This document shows, in pieces, positions 2,951 to 32,338 of a DNA stretch of 50,785 bases. Both the position numbers and the translations under genes were made by a program. The notes under the pieces are model-generated. The model did no database searches and was not told the DNA's origin. It saw only the letters and a program-made list of their open reading frames with translations. The DNA comes from an uncultured Mediterraneibacter sp. (GTDB lineage Bacteria; Bacillota; Clostridia; Lachnospirales; Lachnospiraceae), in the NCBI GenBank assembly GCA_944384505.1, contig CALWTQ010000020.1, positions 1 to 50,785 on the forward strand, written 5' to 3'. The first letter of the stretch is position 1. Every line of letters starts with the position of its first letter.

Positions 2951-5098
2951 ATGCCGCATATTCAGGTATTAGATCAGATTACAATCGACAAGATTGCCGC
3001 CGGGGAAGTGATCGAGCGCCCGGCTTCTATCGTAAAAGAACTGGTGGAGAACGCCATTGACGCAGGCGCGTCCTCCGTGACGGTGGAGATCAAGGACGGG
3101 GGGATCGCCCTGATCCGGGTGATGGACAACGGATGCGGGATCCCCTATGAGGAAGTGCGCAGCGCATTCCTGCGCCATTCCACCAGTAAGATCCGCAGCG
3201 TGGAAGATCTTGCGCATATCAGCTCTCTGGGGTTCAGGGGCGAGGCGCTTTCCAGCATCGCTGCGGTAACAAAAACAGAGCTGATTACAAAGCCGGAGGA
3301 GGCAGAGCTGGGGACCAGATATGTGATCGAAGGCGGAAAGGAGGTCTCTTTAGAAGAGACCGGAGCGCCGGACGGAACTACATTTCTCGTGCACCAGCTC
3401 TTCTACAATGTGCCGGCCAGAAGAAAGTTCTTGAAAACGCCTATGACTGAGGCGGGACATGTACAGGATCTTCTCATGCACCTGGCTCTGTCCCATCCGG
3501 AGGTGGCGTTCCTCTTTAAGAGCAACGGTCAGGAAAAGCTCCGGACTTCAGGAAACGGGAAATTAAAAGACGTGATCTACAATATATATGGGCGTGAAAT
3601 CGCGGCCAACCTTCTGGAAATTGATTACGAAAAGGGCGGCCTGCGCATTGCCGGATATCTCGGAAAGCCTGTGATTACCCGCGGAAACCGGAATTTTGAG
3701 AACTTTTTCGTGAACGGCAGATATGTGAAGAGCCCTATGATATCCAAAGCGCTGGAGGACGCTTACAGAGACTTTACCATGCAGCATAAGTTCCCGTTTG
3801 CTGTTCTTCACTTCCATGTGGATGGAGAGAAAATCGATGTGAATGTCCATCCGACAAAGATGGAGCTGAGGTTCCAGAGACAGCAGGAGGTATACGCTGC
3901 TGTTTTTGAAGGGGTGCACAGAACACTTCTGGAGCCGGAACTGATCCAGAGGGCGGAGGCGCCGCTGCCGATGGGAAAAGGGCCTTCCGCCAAAGGGGAT
4001 CAGAAAGAGAAAAAAGAGAGCCCGTTCCTGCTGCGTCCCAGACAGGAAAACGTTGTGCCGGAGCAGGGGGAAGCAAAAACAGAACCCGCAACAGAAACCG
4101 CTGAGAACGTTCCGGCGGCAGAAGAAACGAAGGAAGAGGTAAAAGACGAAGATTATTTTATCCGAAAAATGAGAGAGAGGGTTATGGCATACCATGAGCG
4201 TATGTCCTCGGCGGAAGTGTCTGACAGGAATGGGATATACCGCCCGGAGAAGCAGGCGGACCGGATCCGGGAAGCTGTGAATTACAGAACCGATGACGAA
4301 GAACAACCCATCAAAACGCAGAGGGAAGCTCCCCAGAATGAACTGCGGGATGTGCAGCCGGCGCCGGAAAGACCGCAGAGTGAACCGCGGGACGCGCAGC
4401 CGGCGCCGGAAAGGGCTCAGGACAAACTGAGTGAACATCCGCCGAAAAATCCGATGGACTCTGAGAAGCCGCGACAGCTCGACTTGTTTGAGGAGAATTT
4501 CTTAAAAAGGGATGTCCGGGCGGAGTATAAGCTAATCGGACAGGTGTTTGACACGTACTGGCTCGTAGAATTTCATGACAGCCTTTATATTATTGACCAG
4601 CATGCGGCCCATGAAAGGGTGCTGTATGAGCGCACGCTAAAGAGTATGAAGAACCGGGAATATACTTCTCAGTATTTAAGTCCGCCGATTATTCTGACGC
4701 TTTCTATGCAGGAGGCCGGACTGCTGGAGGAGAATATGGATCGTTTTTCGCGCATCGGGTTTGAGATAGAGCCTTTTGGACCGGAAGAATATGCGGTACG
4801 GGCAGTTCCGGACAATCTGTTTGGCATCGCGAAGAAGGATCTTCTTATGGAGATGATTGATGATCTCTCAGACGGACTGAATACGTCTATGACTCCGGAA
4901 CTGATTGATGAAAAGGTGGCTTCCATGTCCTGTAAAGCGGCGGTGAAAGGAAACAGCCGCCTCTCCGCGCAGGAGGTGGACGCATTGATCGGGGAACTGC
5001 TGACACTGGAGAATCCGTATCACTGTCCCCACGGACGTCCAACGATTATCGCAATGACGAAGAGGGAACTGGAAAAGAAGTTTAAGAGAATTGTTTGA
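2951..5098 (+). CDS. mutL: DNA mismatch repair protein MutL, endonuclease type
   Basis: MutL couples mismatch recognition by MutS to strand incision. The GHKL ATPase domain (about 1-330) shows ELVENAID with catalytic E33 and N34, DNGCGI and GFRGEAL. A poorly conserved linker (about 335-535) precedes the C-terminal dimerisation/nuclease domain. That domain carries the metal motif DQHAAHE (549-555), CKAAVKG near 661 and CPHGRP (692-697), the signature of MutL proteins that nick DNA themselves in organisms lacking MutH. The ATG is preceded by AAAAGGAGG, 33 nt after the mutS stop. The linker contains a 42-nt tandem repeat (4334-4417). Confidence 0.97.
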   Translation: MPHIQVLDQITIDKIAAGEVIERPASIVKELVENAIDAGASSVTVEIKDGGIALIRVMDNGCGIPYEEVRSAFLRHSTSKIRSVEDLAHISSLGFRGEALSSIAAVTKTELITKPEEAELGTRYVIEGGKEVSLEETGAPDGTTFLVHQLFYNVPARRKFLKTPMTEAGHVQDLLMHLALSHPEVAFLFKSNGQEKLRTSGNGKLKDVIYNIYGREIAANLLEIDYEKGGLRIAGYLGKPVITRGNRNFENFFVNGRYVKSPMISKALEDAYRDFTMQHKFPFAVLHFHVDGEKIDVNVHPTKMELRFQRQQEVYAAVFEGVHRTLLEPELIQRAEAPLPMGKGPSAKGDQKEKKESPFLLRPRQENVVPEQGEAKTEPATETAENVPAAEETKEEVKDEDYFIRKMRERVMAYHERMSSAEVSDRNGIYRPEKQADRIREAVNYRTDDEEQPIKTQREAPQNELRDVQPAPERPQSEPRDAQPAPERAQDKLSEHPPKNPMDSEKPRQLDLFEENFLKRDVRAEYKLIGQVFDTYWLVEFHDSLYIIDQHAAHERVLYERTLKSMKNREYTSQYLSPPIILTLSMQEAGLLEENMDRFSRIGFEIEPFGPEEYAVRAVPDNLFGIAKKDLLMEMIDDLSDGLNTSMTPELIDEKVASMSCKAAVKGNSRLSAQEVDALIGELLTLENPYHCPHGRPTIIAMTKRELEKKFKRIV
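4334..4417 (+). repeat. 42-nt tandem repeat inside mutL (two units)
   Basis: Two in-frame 14-codon units (4334-4375 and 4376-4417) encode QNELRDVQPAPERP and QSEPRDAQPAPERA, and a degenerate third start (QDKL) follows. They share the block GTGCAG/GCGCAG plus CCGGCGCCGGAAAG. The repeat sits in the disordered linker between the ATPase and nuclease domains, where length change should be tolerated. Confidence 0.85.
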
Positions 5099-25052: not shown

Positions 25053-25622
25053 ATGGAAAAGAATATGACAGAAAAAAATACAGAAATCCAGAGGGAGAAT
25101 CATTCCAGACGGCCGGCCGTTTCCTATGCCGCGGCGCTGGCCGGATTCATAGCGGCCGTTCTTCTGGATCAGCTTACCAAATATTGGGCGGCCGCCTCTT
25201 TGAAGGGGAATGAGCCGTTTGTTATTATAAAAGGGGTTTTCGAACTGCGTTATCTGGAGAACCGGGGCGCGGCGTTCGGCCTGATGCAGAATATGCAGAT
25301 CGTCTTTGTGATCGGCGCTGTGGCGGTGATTGCCGCGGTTCTTTTCCTCTATGGGAAAATGCCGCCGGCTGCCAGATTCCTGCCCCTCCGTGTGTGCGCT
25401 GTGCTTTTATGTGCCGGAGCTGTGGGAAATATGATCGACCGTCTCAGACTGAATTATGTGATTGATTTCTTCTATTTCAGGCTGATTGATTTTCCGATTT
25501 TTAATGTAGCGGACTGTTATGTTGTAGTGGCCTGCATTCTCTTCGTCTTCCTGGTTCTGTTCTTTTATAAGGACGAAGACTTTGAGTTCCTCAGCAGGAA
25601 GAGGAAAAAGACGGAGAATTGA
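25053..25622 (+). CDS. lspA: Lipoprotein signal peptidase (SPase II)
   Basis: LspA cleaves prolipoprotein signal peptides in the membrane. The 189-residue protein has four transmembrane helices and the motifs DQLTKYW, NRGAAFGL, GNMIDRL and FNVADCYV, which carry the two catalytic aspartates. The N-terminus is extended by about 20 polar residues; ATG 25065 is an alternative start. It sits between ylmH and rluD as in many Firmicutes. Confidence 0.95.
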   Translation: MEKNMTEKNTEIQRENHSRRPAVSYAAALAGFIAAVLLDQLTKYWAAASLKGNEPFVIIKGVFELRYLENRGAAFGLMQNMQIVFVIGAVAVIAAVLFLYGKMPPAARFLPLRVCAVLLCAGAVGNMIDRLRLNYVIDFFYFRLIDFPIFNVADCYVVVACILFVFLVLFFYKDEDFEFLSRKRKKTEN

Positions 25623-25705
25623 GAGTTTCCAGGCAGGAATCGGTAAGAAACAGCGGATCATGGTCTTCCGGAGTGAAGCGAAAAGAAAAAGGAGGCATGC
25701 CAGAG

Positions 25706-26614
25706 ATGGAGGAGATATATCTTACAGCCGGCTGCAGCGGGGAAAGGATTGACAGATTCTTAAGCGGGGATCTGGAAAACCTTTCCCGTTCTTATATCCA
25801 GAAGCTGGTAAAGGACGGAAGCGTCAGTGTAAATGGCAGATCCGTAAAGGCAAATTATAAAGTGAGCGAGGGGGATGAGATTATAGTGCAGATCCCGGAT
25901 CCGGAGATTCTGGACGTGCAGCCGGAGGATATCCCCCTTGACATCCTCTACGAGGACGATGATATTCTTGTGGTAAACAAACCGAAAGGGATGGTGGTGC
26001 ACCCGGCTCCCGGCCATTACAGCCATACCCTCGTAAATGCCATCCTCTGGCACTGCGGAGAACGGCTCTCGGGAATTAACGGCGTGCTGCGCCCGGGAAT
26101 CGTCCACCGGATTGACATGGACACCACAGGTTCTCTCCTGGTGTGCAAGAATGACCGGGCTCACCAGATCCTTGCAGAAGAGCTGAAAGAACACTCCATC
26201 ACCAGGCGCTATCATGCCATTGTGCACGGAAATCTGAAGGATGATACCGGTACGGTAAACGCGCCGATCGGGAGACACCCGGCAGACCGGAAAAAGATGA
26301 GCACAAAAGCTCCGAACGGGCGGCCCGCGGTTACCCATTACCGTGTATTGGAACGTTTTGGAAATTACACATATATTGAGTGCGAACTGGAGACCGGACG
26401 CACCCATCAGATCCGGGTGCATATGTCCGGCATCGGGCATCCGATTCTGGGGGATACGGTGTACGGGCCGGCAAAATGCCCGTTCCGCCTCCAGGGACAA
26501 ACACTGCACGCCAAAATCCTCGGGATACGGCATCCGTCTACAGGAGAATATATGGAATTTGACGCGCCGCTGCCGGAGTACTTTATTGCACTCCTGGAGC
26601 GCCTGAGGAAGTAA
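25706..26614 (+). CDS. RluD/RluA family 23S rRNA pseudouridine synthase
   Basis: A 302-residue pseudouridine synthase. An N-terminal S4 domain (about 15-75, RIDRFLSGDLENLSRSYIQK) is followed by the catalytic domain with D137 in HRIDMDTTGSLLV, and GRTHQIRVHMS near 225. The target is probably helix 69 or another large-subunit site. I chose ATG 25706, 10 nt after AAAAAGGAGG; ATG 25697 is 1 nt from that site. A long-hairpin repeat begins 2 nt after its stop codon. Confidence 0.92.
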   Translation: MEEIYLTAGCSGERIDRFLSGDLENLSRSYIQKLVKDGSVSVNGRSVKANYKVSEGDEIIVQIPDPEILDVQPEDIPLDILYEDDDILVVNKPKGMVVHPAPGHYSHTLVNAILWHCGERLSGINGVLRPGIVHRIDMDTTGSLLVCKNDRAHQILAEELKEHSITRRYHAIVHGNLKDDTGTVNAPIGRHPADRKKMSTKAPNGRPAVTHYRVLERFGNYTYIECELETGRTHQIRVHMSGIGHPILGDTVYGPAKCPFRLQGQTLHAKILGIRHPSTGEYMEFDAPLPEYFIALLERLRK

Positions 26615-26616
26615 GG

Positions 26617-26962
26617 CAGCTTTTAGCACAATAACATTCCCGGAGAGTACGTCCGGAAGCGGAGCGGATGTTTGAAACGTGTTCTTTGAGAGGGGACGTG
26701 TGTGTACTGCTCCGTTCCGGAATCCGGGAAGGATCTAAGAAGCCGGAGAGCTGTTTAAGTGCAAAGCGGCGCTCCGGGCAACTCGCTTCGCTCAGACAAT
26801 CCCTGCGCGCCGCTTAACAACAGCTCTCCGACTTCTAAGATCTTCTATCAGATTCCTCCAAAGTCACAGTCCCCACACGCCCCTCTCAAAGAACTTACGC
26901 TTCAAACATCCGCTCCGCTTCCTGCGCGTTTCCAGTCGGAATGTTATTGCCCTAATAGGCTG
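26617..26962 (+). repeat. Complete long-hairpin repeat, copy 1 (346 bp)
   Basis: The two halves form one long imperfect inverted repeat. Perfectly paired blocks include 26629-26640 with 26938-26949 (12 bp), 26655-26676 with 26901-26922 (22 bp) and 26681-26695 with 26880-26894 (15 bp). GGAGAGCTGTT (26745-26755) pairs with its partner near 26819-26829, and GCGGCGC with GCGCCGC is at the tip. The apical loop is about 26779-26800 and contains ACTCGCTTCGCTCAGAC. Outer ends are CAGC and GCTG. It begins 2 nt after the rluD-type stop. Short open frames inside it are not credible genes. Confidence 0.9.
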
Positions 26963-26974
26963 AAACGCAAAGTT

Positions 26975-27025
26975 GGCGCGGCTTGTGGGCTTTCGGCTGT
27001 GAAAGCTTACCGGCCGCGCCTGTTT
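26975..27025 (+). terminator. Intrinsic terminator of the sepF-rluD cluster
   Basis: GGCGCGGC (26975-26982) pairs with GCCGCGCC (27013-27020) around an inner stem GCTTTC (26989-26994)/GAAAGC (27001-27006). TGTTTTTACG follows. It lies between the two long-hairpin repeats and would end transcripts reading through copy 1. Confidence 0.75.
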
Positions 27026-27031
27026 TTACGA

Positions 27032-27372
27032 CAGCTATATATTCATTAACTTCCGGCTCGAAAAGCCCAGAAAACAGCCCCATTTCGAGAAAAATTCTGC
27101 GGGGATGGAGGATGGCGACGGGCGCCTTCGGAAGGGGATTAGAGAAACTTGAAGCTGCGGCTGCGGATGTTAGGCCAGGAGGGGAGATTGTCTGAGCGTA
27201 AGCGAGTTGCTCTCCTCCTGGCCTTGCATTTAATCCTCAGCCTCAGCTTCTTAGTTTCCCCTATCCCCTGGAGCGAAGCCCTGAGCCATCCTCCATTCCC
27301 GCAGAATACGTCTCAGAAATCATCCCTGTTTTCGGACGTTTCACACAGGGAGGTTAGTGAACTTTATAGCTG
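27032..27372 (-). repeat. Complete long-hairpin repeat, copy 2 (341 bp, inverted)
   Basis: Terminal CAGCTATA (27032-27039) pairs with TATAGCTG (27365-27372). CATTAACTTCC (27044-27054) pairs with GGAGGTTAGTG (27349-27359) using two G-U type pairs. GAAAACAG pairs with CTGTTTTC (27070-27077/27326-27333), 27095-27116 with 27285-27306 (22 positions, one wobble), and GGCCAGGAGG with CCTCCTGGCC (27173-27182/27214-27223). The loop around 27188-27210 has TCTGAGCGTAAGCGAG. Read on the minus strand it aligns with copy 1, for example ACGTCCG near the 5' end and the same loop, so the two copies are inverted relative to each other. Confidence 0.9.
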
Positions 27373-27400: not shown

Positions 27401-27429
27401 TTGTAAAAGAGACGCAATTTGTTTATAAT
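27401..27429 (+). promoter_or_regulatory. Sigma-A promoter for the cytidylate-kinase-like gene
   Basis: TTGTAA (27401-27406) and a perfect TATAAT (27424-27429) are 17 bp apart. It begins 28 bp after the end of the copy 2 hairpin, much as the mutS promoter begins 22 bp after the partial copy. The leader to the ATG is about 83 nt. Confidence 0.85.
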
Positions 27430-27518: not shown

Positions 27519-28166
27519 ATGAAAACAAATACAATTATAACCATCGGAAGGGAATACGGCAGTGCCGGGCGTGAGATTGGATATAAGGTGGCCGAGGCGT
27601 TTGGCATTAAACTGTATGACAAAGAGATGCTTGCAAGGGCTGCAAAAGAAAGCGGAATCTGTGAAGAGATTTTCGAATCTCATGATGAAAAACCGACAAA
27701 CAGTTTTCTCTATTCTCTTGTTATGGATACATATTCCATGGGATATTCGGGCAATTCTTATACAGATATGCCAATCAATCACAAAGTATTTCTCGCGCAG
27801 TTTGACGCGATTAAAAAGATTGCGGACGAGGGCCCGTGCATACTTGTCGGAAGATGCGCGGATTATGCTCTGGAGTCCTATAAAAATGTAGTCAGTATAT
27901 TTATTCATGCGGATATGAATGCGAGGATCCGGAGAATCGCGCGCATCTATGATCTGACTGATGCAAAAGCAAAAGACCGTATTGTAAAGACAGATAAGCA
28001 GAGATCCAGCTATTATAACTATTATACGAATAAAAAATGGTCTGACGCAGACAGCTATGAGCTGTGCCTTACAAGTTCTGAGCTCGGAATTGAGGGAACG
28101 GCGCAGGCAATCATCAACTATGTGAACATGAAGGAGAGCATTAAGAAAGAGGACCGCCGGCTATAG
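27519..28166 (+). CDS. Cytidylate kinase-like family protein
   Basis: A 215-residue P-loop kinase-like protein (the cytidylate kinase-like family). The nucleotide-binding region is TIGREYGSAGREIGYKVAE (about 8-26), with LVGRCADYAL near 112 and a basic lid-like segment ARIRRIARIYDLTDAKAKDRI. It differs from the housekeeping Cmk and its substrate is unknown. ATG 27519 has AAAGGAG 11 nt upstream; the open frame to 27447 has no site. It is transcribed alone from the 27401-27429 promoter. Confidence 0.88.
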   Translation: MKTNTIITIGREYGSAGREIGYKVAEAFGIKLYDKEMLARAAKESGICEEIFESHDEKPTNSFLYSLVMDTYSMGYSGNSYTDMPINHKVFLAQFDAIKKIADEGPCILVGRCADYALESYKNVVSIFIHADMNARIRRIARIYDLTDAKAKDRIVKTDKQRSSYYNYYTNKKWSDADSYELCLTSSELGIEGTAQAIINYVNMKESIKKEDRRL

Positions 28167-31270: not shown

Positions 31271-32338
31271 TTATACCTCCCGCAGCTTCACCGCTCCGGC
31301 TGCCTGCCTGCGCCGGTTCTCATCTATGGCAGCGTAATGCTTCTTCGTTGTATTTACGTCCTTGTGGCCGAGGACATCCGCCACAAGGTAGATATCGCCG
31401 GTTTCCTTATATAAAGCTGTACCGTAAGTGCTGCGCAGCTTATGAGGAGTAATTTTTTTGTTCGGCGTCACTTCTTTGGCATATTTCTTTACCATATTCT
31501 CTACGGCCTGAACGCCCATCCGTTTTCTCTGTGTGGAGAGAAAAAGCGCGTTCTCATGTCCCGGAAGCGGGAGAGTAGTCCTGCGTGTTGTATACATATA
31601 GGTTTTCAGAGCATTTTCTACCTCCTCACCAAAGTAAACAACCATTTCATTTCCGCCCTTGCGTGTTACTTTGATGCCGTTGTTTTTAAAATCTACATCC
31701 TGGATATCAAGTCCCACACACTCTGAAACACGGATCCCGGTTCCGAGAAGAAGAGTGAGAATCGCAAGATCACGGTTCTTTGTCTTTTCGTAATAAACCT
31801 TTCTCTGACCGGTCAGATTATCGCCGCCGTGATCCACATAGTCAAGCAGTTTCGCTACCTCATCCGTATCCAAACGTATGATCGCCTTTTCATGGAGCTT
31901 CGGCATATCCACAAGCAGCGTCGGGTTATTCGCAATTGCCTGCCTTTTATAAAAATATCCGTAAAAGCTCCTGAGAGCCGACATCTTGCGAGCAAGGCCT
32001 TTTTCCGTATTTGTGATCTGTTTGTCGTCATTTTCATAAACTTTCAGATATTCCTGATATTCCTCGATATCAACCGGTTCCAGACGCTCCAGATCCTGCA
32101 GAGTAAACTGATCTATTGTATAATTCTTATAAATCGGATTATTATCCATTAAATAATGAAAAAAGACACGGATATCATATGCATAAGAAATCCTTGTCCT
32201 GGCCGATGTAGTCGGCTCAACCGCACGGAAATAATCCTTTGCAAACGGAGGCAGCGTCTTAAGAATAGATCTGAGACGCAAGGTGTTATCAATATATTTC
32301 TGTTCATGATATGTTTTTGATTTGGATGATGTTTCCAT
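31271..32338 (-). CDS. XerS-like tyrosine recombinase
   Basis: A 355-residue tyrosine recombinase. Catalytic residues are R203 (GTGIRVSE), K227 (TRKGGN), H299 and R302 (HKLR), H325 (LGHKD) and nucleophile Y335 (KHY). An N-terminal SAM-like core-binding domain covers about 25-150. Length and the segment KNRDLAILTLLLGTGIRVSE resemble streptococcal XerS, which acts alone on dif, and homologues sit beside lexA in Lachnospiraceae. No attachment sites or phage genes are nearby, so a chromosome-dimer role is more likely than mobility. AAGGGG precedes the ATG. Confidence 0.85.
   Translation of the reverse strand: METSSKSKTYHEQKYIDNTLRLRSILKTLPPFAKDYFRAVEPTTSARTRISYAYDIRVFFHYLMDNNPIYKNYTIDQFTLQDLERLEPVDIEEYQEYLKVYENDDKQITNTEKGLARKMSALRSFYGYFYKRQAIANNPTLLVDMPKLHEKAIIRLDTDEVAKLLDYVDHGGDNLTGQRKVYYEKTKNRDLAILTLLLGTGIRVSECVGLDIQDVDFKNNGIKVTRKGGNEMVVYFGEEVENALKTYMYTTRRTTLPLPGHENALFLSTQRKRMGVQAVENMVKKYAKEVTPNKKITPHKLRSTYGTALYKETGDIYLVADVLGHKDVNTTKKHYAAIDENRRRQAAGAVKLREV

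What the first reader, a model, noticed from the sequence alone, without database searches (positions are those of the whole stretch)
26617..27372. Dispersed ~345-bp long-hairpin repeat family with two inverted copies in one gap
The sequence shows two complete elements (346 bp at 26617-26962 and 341 bp at 27032-27372). Each is one long imperfect hairpin with CAGC...GCTG ends. They align in opposite orientation (shared ACGTCCG, TTCT, GGGG, CTAAGAAG blocks and loop), so they are homologous copies and not two independent palindromes. The arms pair with wobble and compensating differences, which suggests selection or a copying mechanism acting on the folded form. I do not recognise the family. It may be a MITE-like element, a structured RNA, or both.
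Basis: seen in the sequence. Interest (0 to 1): 0.8.

Follow-up and report, generated by a model that had tools for sequence, protein, structure and literature searches.

The report
Giant paired hairpins behind stop codons
A gut bacterium carries a few hundred copies of a roughly 760-base element made of two giant folding hairpins, placed almost exactly where genes end; the fold is conserved in related bacteria and matches no family of the RNA catalogue searched, so it looks like a mobile "gene-ending" cassette of a kind not yet described.

Summary
In detail: 26617-26962 and 27032-27372 are homologous, inverted hairpins (z -15.9, -15.1). They are halves of one composite of 756 bp, hairpin A - spacer hairpin - hairpin B; 26 such composites were aligned in this genome, and the right end occurs 257 times. 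Related DNA occurs in 27 of 57 congeners (probably Mediterraneibacter). The apical 137 nt form a structural family without an Rfam match: 36 of 38 pairs show changes on both sides, covariation 0.797 against 0.264 shuffled. Its model matches 21 of 250 Lachnospiraceae genomes. Elements sit at gene ends: 43 of 53 facing gene 3' ends within 30 bp (median 5), against median 106 bp to 5' ends. In a second species 15 of 22 ends have the stop codon at -2 to +1. No target duplication; no autonomous partner found. Best reading: a non-autonomous, formerly or still mobile 3'-end cassette that works like BIME/REP or BOX repeats and whose fold is under selection. Mobiliser and RNA role are not shown.

The parts
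26617..27372 (.). Complete composite element (756 bp): hairpin A - spacer - hairpin B, non-coding
   Evidence: 26 composites aligned, sharp boundaries CAGCTAT...ATAGCTG, unrelated flanks
26617..26962 (-). Hairpin A (346 bp); the better-folding strand is minus
   Evidence: fold z -15.9; minus strand more stable in 26 of 26 copies and 11 of 11 congener copies
26963..27031 (.). Spacer, with a GC-rich stem-loop at 26975-27020 followed by TGTTTTT
   Evidence: conserved in 18 aligned spacers; terminator-like by a simple scan in 11 of 26 copies on +, 0 of 26 on -
27032..27372 (+). Hairpin B (341 bp); the better-folding strand is plus
   Evidence: fold z -15.1; plus strand more stable in 24 of 26 copies and 11 of 11 congener copies
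26719..26855 (-). Apical structured module of A (model R1)
   Evidence: R1 match 129 bits, E 3.1e-27; this copy is in the training alignment A1
27132..27269 (+). Apical structured module of B (model R1)
   Evidence: R1 match 127.6 bits, E 7.0e-27; this copy is in the training alignment A1
26779..26799 (-). Conserved apical loop region of A (TTGTCTGAGCGAAGCGAGTTG on the minus strand)
   Evidence: conserved columns of alignment A1
27188..27209 (+). Conserved apical loop region of B (TTGTCTGAGCGTAAGCGAGTTG)
   Evidence: conserved columns of alignment A1
26617..26636 (+). Left terminal inverted repeat (family consensus CAGCTATTTAGCGCACTAAC; this copy differs at several bases)
27353..27372 (-). Right terminal inverted repeat (GTTAGTGAACTTTATAGCTG read on +)
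   Evidence: 257 genome matches at <=3 mismatches, reversed control 0
25619..26614 (+). Upstream gene (RNA pseudouridylate synthase PF00849 + S4); its stop codon is separated from the element by 2 bp
27519..28166 (+). Downstream gene (Cytidylate_kin2, PF13189); a -35/-10-like site lies just behind the element (27401-27429)
   Evidence: the promoter-like block aligns in congeners without the element

Best explanation
A non-autonomous, formerly or still mobile composite element that lodges at the 3' ends of genes. SHOWN: it is inserted DNA (absent from the orthologous sites examined), bounded by terminal inverted repeats, amplified separately in at least two species of the genus, and set at or within a few bases of stop codons, sometimes supplying the stop codon itself. 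Its two hairpins are inverted homologues whose apical part is a structured nucleic acid kept by compensatory change, with fixed unpaired motifs; in each half the outward-reading strand folds better. INFERRED: copies spread in trans through an unidentified enzyme that recognises the ends and/or the hairpins; insertions survive where they spare reading frames and promoters, that is at stop codons; once there, a transcript running off the neighbouring gene gets a very long, stable 3' hairpin plus the spacer stem-loop, so the element acts as a two-way 3'-end module (transcript ending, 3' protection, or REP-like damping of translation).
For: Insertion: 0 of 80 orthologous rluD-cmk loci carry it; the gap there is 77-278 bp in the 79 measured, against 904 - 756 = 148 bp here. 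Composite and copy number. Separate amplification: G026 copies are 74-93% identical to one G026 copy (99% for a 136-base piece) but 71-72% to this window over their best stretches. Position; in G056, 15 of 22 ends have the stop codon at -2 to +1, and 9 of 11 elements have a gene end within 30 nt on both sides. Element-supplied stop codons: 14 of the 61 3' ends, one of them against a site without the element. Fold. Polarity; G-U 89 against A-C 33 cells at paired columns of A1. Persistence: 3 of 7 sites compared between species align through the boundary and are occupied in both.
Against: No mobiliser was found. Of the 5 Y1 transposase matches in this genome, two sit inside elements as later insertions (C15, C73), one has repeats of its own (C50), one has no element in its fetched 3.4 kb (C33), and one is a fragment beside a piece of A (C54). 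The 20 terminal-repeat pairs that I read off in G056 are 244-865 bp apart, too short for most transposases. No target-site duplication; the outer bases are not uniform (AACAGTT precedes some copies only; flanks are palindromic at 4 bp in 6 of 62 against 1.7 expected), unlike clean DDE transposition. The spacer is a weak terminator by sequence. The better-folding strand is the outward one, not the one that neighbours transcribe when they read into the element, which the 3'-module idea does not explain. In G056 the terminal repeat supplies part of most stop codons, so some of that precision is built in. No transcription data.
Confidence: 0.5

Rival explanations
1. A purely selfish ssDNA element, a 'giant BIME/REPIN': the outward strand of each hairpin is folded as single-stranded DNA and recognised by a Y1 (RAYT-like) transposase, and the stop-codon position is only what selection lets survive.
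For: Two inverted palindromes with a spacer (as in BIME-1), no target duplication, strand polarity of the fold, and a loop of the GCGNAGC type that is also visible in several enterobacterial REPs of the table in PMC2817692 (passages). Y1 genes of RAYT-like length and low score (255-284 aa) are present in this genome, G026 and G056; 'RAYT-like' is my reading of length and score.
Against: The RAYT-like gene of this genome is flanked by unrelated repeats. G327 carries two copies of the hairpin and has no Y1 match. G007, G023 and G034 have Y1 genes and no element match by DNA search (they were not searched with R1). The ends carry no GTAG or CGTC tag.
Confidence: 0.2
2. Each hairpin is an independently transcribed, outward-reading non-coding RNA; the composite is a divergent pair, and the mobile unit spreads because the RNA acts (for example by base pairing with, or protein binding near, the convergent neighbour).
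For: G-U is preferred over A-C on the outward strand (89 against 33 cells), and A(-) and B(+) fold better in 11 of 11 congener copies each. In other genera the RNA's 3' side faces a gene 3' end in 20 of 28 loci.
Against: A simple scan finds no outward promoter in this copy. The orientation bias at single-hairpin loci is modest (14 antisense against 6 sense between tandem genes, read off). On pairs common to both strand fits the G-U excess is smaller (64 against 33 in B, 39 against 23 in A). No RNA data.
Confidence: 0.18
3. The arms match because DNA-level arm-to-arm gene conversion in palindromes keeps them complementary; no selection on the fold.
For: Palindromes can homogenise; outer arms in other genera are close to perfect in several copies and differ between loci.
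Against: The asymmetric internal loop (GTTA against TTTGCTTTTAG) and the apical loop are conserved (the apical loop also in the other-family matches shown), and conversion would erase asymmetric loops. The G-U against A-C strand asymmetry is not expected.
Confidence: 0.05

Closest known systems
BIME-1 / REP / REPIN (with RAYT)
   Same: High copy number, extragenic, two palindromes in opposite orientation close together; many REPs lie 1-20 nt behind ORFs and are reported to lower translation only when nearer than 16 nt to the stop codon (passages of PMC12306157; of PMC2817692); pairing preserved
   Different: About 345-nt hairpins instead of 20-40 bp (abstract of PMC3733652 in the listing); internal and apical loop motifs conserved over a bacterial family; no GTAG/CGTC tag; no cognate RAYT found
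Pneumococcal BOX and SPRITE repeats
   Same: Interspersed repeats with extensive predicted RNA fold; BOX is modular and encodes the stop codon in 36 cases; SPRITE enriched near 3' ends and between convergent genes; new insertions slow (passages of PMC3049150)
   Different: Different module plan (mirror pair of giant hairpins plus spacer) and host; no sequence comparison with BOX was run
Classical MITE
   Same: Non-coding, terminal inverted repeats, highly base-paired, internal-deletion variants, dispersed
   Different: No target-site duplication seen, no parent transposon with these ends found, long structured interior under selection
Rfam structured RNAs
   Same: Covariation of the kind that supports an RNA family
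   Different: No family at gathering score in the whole window; two sub-threshold microRNA models at E<=1

Membership tests
MITE | Terminal inverted repeats, non-coding | tested here: met
   in G056 AAATCTGAGTTTG/CAAACTCAGATTT or near variants at both ends in 11 of 13 fetched loci
MITE | Target-site duplication | tested here: not met
   62 elements: 4-mer duplications 1 against 0.22 expected, 5- to 9-mers 0, 2- and 3-mers at the shuffled level. In G056 a TA on both sides in 4 of 11 copies, by eye
MITE | Parent transposon with the same ends | tested here: inconclusive
   G056: 47 matches, 20 pairs read off, all 244-865 bp, 7 unpaired matches not inspected; G000: 48 matches to the extended end, not all inspected
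MITE | AT-rich | not tested
   base composition of the family was not computed
REP/BIME (RAYT-type) | Palindromes of 20-40 bp with a GTAG or CGTC tag | tested here: not met
   hairpins of 341-346 bp, ends CAGCTAT
REP/BIME (RAYT-type) | rayt gene flanked by the cognate repeat | tested here: not met
   5 Y1 matches in G000; the one of RAYT-like length (C50) has other repeats
REP/BIME (RAYT-type) | Position close behind stop codons | tested here: met
   43 of 53 facing gene 3' ends within 30 bp, median 5
BOX (pneumococcus) | boxA-boxB-boxC sequence homology | not tested
   no BOX model was run
Any Rfam 15 family | Score at or above gathering | tested here: not met
   0 matches in the window
Structured RNA/ssDNA family (own model R1) | Covariation above controls | tested here: met
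   0.797 against 0.264 shuffled and at most 0.236 slid; 92.3% of cells paired against 64.7% shuffled and at most 55.8% slid
Structured RNA (transcribed) | Expression from the better-folding strand | not testable with these tools
   no RNA-seq available

The most novel reading that the evidence does not exclude
A new class of mobile genetic element whose body is a mirror pair of large structured RNAs and whose niche is the stop codon: it installs gene 3' ends genome-wide, so that a sizeable share of a bacterium's transcripts end in copies of one mobile, selected RNA fold that belongs to a family reaching across Lachnospiraceae and, by weak matches with the same loop, into other Clostridia.
Probability: 0.3. 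Interest if true: 0.88.

Novelty: new variant of a known kind. Interest (0 to 1): 0.72.

Why it matters
If the 3'-end role holds, one mobile fold has rewritten how a few hundred genes of a gut bacterium end, and insertion at stop codons becomes a testable route by which repeats are tolerated and then put to use. The covariation gives a model that can be used at once to annotate Lachnospiraceae genomes, where these hairpins also seem to break assemblies: many contigs of this genome start or stop inside a copy. It also raises the question of which enzyme moves an element with no target duplication and no autonomous relative found.

Tried and rejected
Autonomous partner: Y1 transposases in the own genome and in 18 other genomes (16 of 18 have one), the extended terminal repeat in the own genome and the terminal repeat in near-complete G056 gave no element seen to hold a transposase between these ends; other transposase families were not searched. 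One solo end (C2:52848) lay right behind a stop codon with no hairpin beside it. Phage and plasmid origin: no blastn match in phages or plasmids; exact patterns in viral contigs gave 0, 2, 6 and 1 stretches, not examined further.

Terminator replacement: terminator-like sites in the joined flanks (element removed) were 8 of 61, against 34 of 127 control 3' ends; perhaps a depletion, but the scan is crude, and at the window locus I see no terminator in the aligned congeners (by eye). Wholesale deletion of the old intergenic region is not general: residual gaps have a median of 113 bp at tandem sites against 29 bp background; at convergent sites 56.5 (n = 8) against 104 bp (n = 47). In one search the residual gaps were typed by hand: one of 37 tandem sites (C1:84372) was left out and one value was typed as 549 for 548. 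Y1 presence did not predict element presence. The strand test on pairs common to both strand fits gave the same direction with smaller ratios.

Automatic hairpin-boundary calling in other genera failed and was replaced by plain folds. Paper searches; the loop sequence as text is in 0 papers of the library. From papers I saw listings and passages only. PMC8040213 (passages) reports 250 palindromic candidates among 3161 structured RNAs of human microbiomes; whether one of them is this family was not checked. Rows dropped: two truncated hits of 37 (L074:1159-1233 and the one in L086) were left out of alignment A1, to which the two window copies were added. An earlier count said 16 of 22 G056 ends at -2 to +1; a recount gives 15.

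Full report
What is there. In the 904-bp gap between an RluD-type pseudouridine synthase gene (stop codon ending at 26614) and a cytidylate-kinase-like gene (start 27519) lies a 756-bp insert, 26617-27372. It consists of hairpin A (346 bp), a 69-bp spacer with a GC-rich stem-loop, and hairpin B (341 bp). Each hairpin folds far better than shuffled sequence: -187.2 against a mean of -100.7 (z -15.9) and -190.5 against -108.5 (z -15.1), 0 of 100 shuffles reaching either. A and B are homologous in opposite orientation and share the loop TTGTCTGAGCG-NA-GCGAGTTG.

One unit, not two. Own-genome searches gave 40 places for each half, 40 being the number scored. Putting the places together gave 26 composites of 723-765 bp (A and B matches each over 250 bp), with sharp ends (CAGCTAT...ATAGCTG) and unrelated flanks. 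The script asked for the order A-B; the unfiltered listing of 60 loci shows no other order. In the congener G026, some loci instead have two B-type halves pointing apart (L244, L258, L260, L263). The right-end 20-mer occurs 257 times with up to 3 mismatches; the reversed control occurs 0 times. At about 0.7 kb each this would be some 4-5% of the 3.95-Mb assembly (my estimate; partial and contracted copies make it rough). In 652 kb of sampled sequence, partly chosen for carrying elements, 106 segments were found, 63 of them with both ends. Contracted copies lack the tops of A or B but keep the ends.

It is inserted DNA. Eighty orthologous loci, mostly labelled Mediterraneibacter and kin, were fetched through the kinase protein. 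None shows a match to the element; the rluD-cmk gap is 77-278 bp in the 79 measured, against 148 bp here once the element is taken away. The promoter-like block upstream of the kinase aligns in congeners and lies intact behind the element. A site without the element elsewhere (C71:7992-8752 against G056 L322) shows it near the end of a gene (product not identified by a call): some 50-60 bp of the G056 sequence, the C-terminal tail and what follows, have no clear counterpart, and the stop codon now lies in the element. Of 7 flank comparisons between species, 3 align through the boundary: C23:12736 with G026 L239 (same point within a few bases), C40:26703 with G026 L264, and C26:24546 with G014 L084, where the same gene end carries an element with different terminal letters; 4 alignments stop short of the boundary.

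Where it sits. For 59 elements with flanking ORFs, gene 3' ends facing the element lie a median 5 bp away (43 of 53 within 30 bp), gene 5' ends a median 106 bp away (n = 65). A distance of 0 includes ORFs that run into the element. The copies come from loci picked for well-preserved matches, and ORFs were called mechanically, so single gaps may be off. A scan that kept only ends with a stop codon up to 40 nt outside or inside the element found 61: 38 at 0-10 nt, 9 at 11-40 nt, and 14 that use a stop codon inside the element; A-end 31, B-end 30. In G056, 11 of 13 fetched loci have both terminal repeats; 15 of their 22 ends have the stop codon at -2 to +1 of the boundary, 20 of 22 have one within the scanned range, and 9 of 11 elements have one on both sides, that is between convergent genes. 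There the terminal repeat (AAATC...) supplies the last letters of most of these stop codons, so part of the precision is built in. In G026 the same scan gave 7 of 14 ends with a stop codon in range.

The fold is conserved. The apical part was aligned from 37 copies of 26 genomes. Of 38 pairs, 36 have changes on both sides; 92.3% of cells pair against 64.7% in shuffles; the covariation score is 0.797 against 0.264 shuffled and at most 0.236 with slid partners. Unpaired motifs are conserved: the apical loop, and an asymmetric internal loop GTTA against TTTGCTTTTAG. A folds better on the minus strand in 26 of 26 composites and 11 of 11 in congeners, B on the plus strand in 24 of 26 and 11 of 11. 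At paired columns G-U outnumbers A-C 89 to 33 on the outward strand, 25 pairs against 10 (sign test p 0.008); the structure was derived on that strand, and on pairs common to both strand fits the excess is smaller. So the outward strand of each half is the one that behaves like a folded molecule.

Spread. DNA search: 28 of 99 genomes match, all in this genus (own plus 27 of 57 congeners; 0 of 41 others). G026 has its own amplified set. With covariance model R1, 21 of 250 Lachnospiraceae genomes match at E <= 1e-3, own included, and 12 of 291 genomes drawn from the class: own, one of the same family and ten of other families with weak scores. In the five of those ten whose alignments I saw, the apical loop is the same or nearly so. 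Copy numbers from a deeper search: 150 of 150 scored in this genome (a floor), 17 in G056, 2-10 in five other genera. In other genera the hairpin is mostly single (one facing pair among the 28 loci searched), copies within a genome differ outside the core, and its 3' side faces a gene 3' end in 20 of 28 loci, its 5' side in 11 of 27.

How it may work. A transcript that leaves the neighbouring gene runs, within a few bases of the stop codon, into a hairpin of well over 100 base pairs and then a conserved GC-rich stem-loop with a T-rich tail on the plus strand. That could mark, protect or end the transcript; REPs at this distance are reported to lower translation (passages of PMC12306157). This role is inferred. 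Against a simple terminator: the spacer passes a crude terminator scan in only 11 of 26 copies on + and 0 of 26 on -, and the strand that neighbours transcribe is the less stable one. The polarity instead suggests that the outward strand acts as RNA or as single-stranded DNA, for instance in transposition. No mobiliser was found, there is no target duplication, and some copies are preceded by AACAGTT while others are not, so the insertion chemistry is open.

Verdict. Not ordinary: a covariation-supported family without an Rfam match and with a striking position, of the general kind of BIME/REP and BOX repeats, but failing at least one defining feature of MITEs and REPs that I tested (BOX was not tested). 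I file it as a new variant of a known kind and keep the bolder reading (a mobile 3'-end cassette built from paired structured RNAs) at 0.3.

Noticed in passing
G000 C15:48787-50219 (L042) and C73 (L192): IS200-type Y1 transposase copies inserted inside composite elements, one between hairpin A and the spacer, one within hairpin A; the elements serve as landing sites for other ISs.
   Followed up: partly
G000 C50, L193:1099-1866: A 255-aa RAYT-like Y1 transposase flanked by its own unrelated palindromes (GGGACGTAGTAAAAT...), a second REP-type system in the same genome.
   Followed up: partly
window 31271-32338 (-): A 355-aa tyrosine recombinase (PF00589/PF02899) about 4 kb from the element; resembles XerS by recall only.
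   Followed up: no
window 4324-4407: Two tandem 42-bp repeats, 81% alike.
   Followed up: no
G000 C2:52848-52865 (L182): A solo copy of the element's outer end directly behind a stop codon, with no hairpin; possibly a near-complete internal deletion.
   Followed up: partly
ends of elements at G000 C6:47436, C52:21645, C78:8943, C103:4185: About 16 outermost bases are tandemly repeated in some copies (e.g. GAACTTTATAGCTG TTGAACTTTATAGCTG), unexplained by simple transposition.
   Followed up: no
contig ends of G000 (e.g. C63, C120, C38, C44, C30, C76, C119): Contigs start or end inside elements, so the family probably fragments assemblies of this genus.
   Followed up: no
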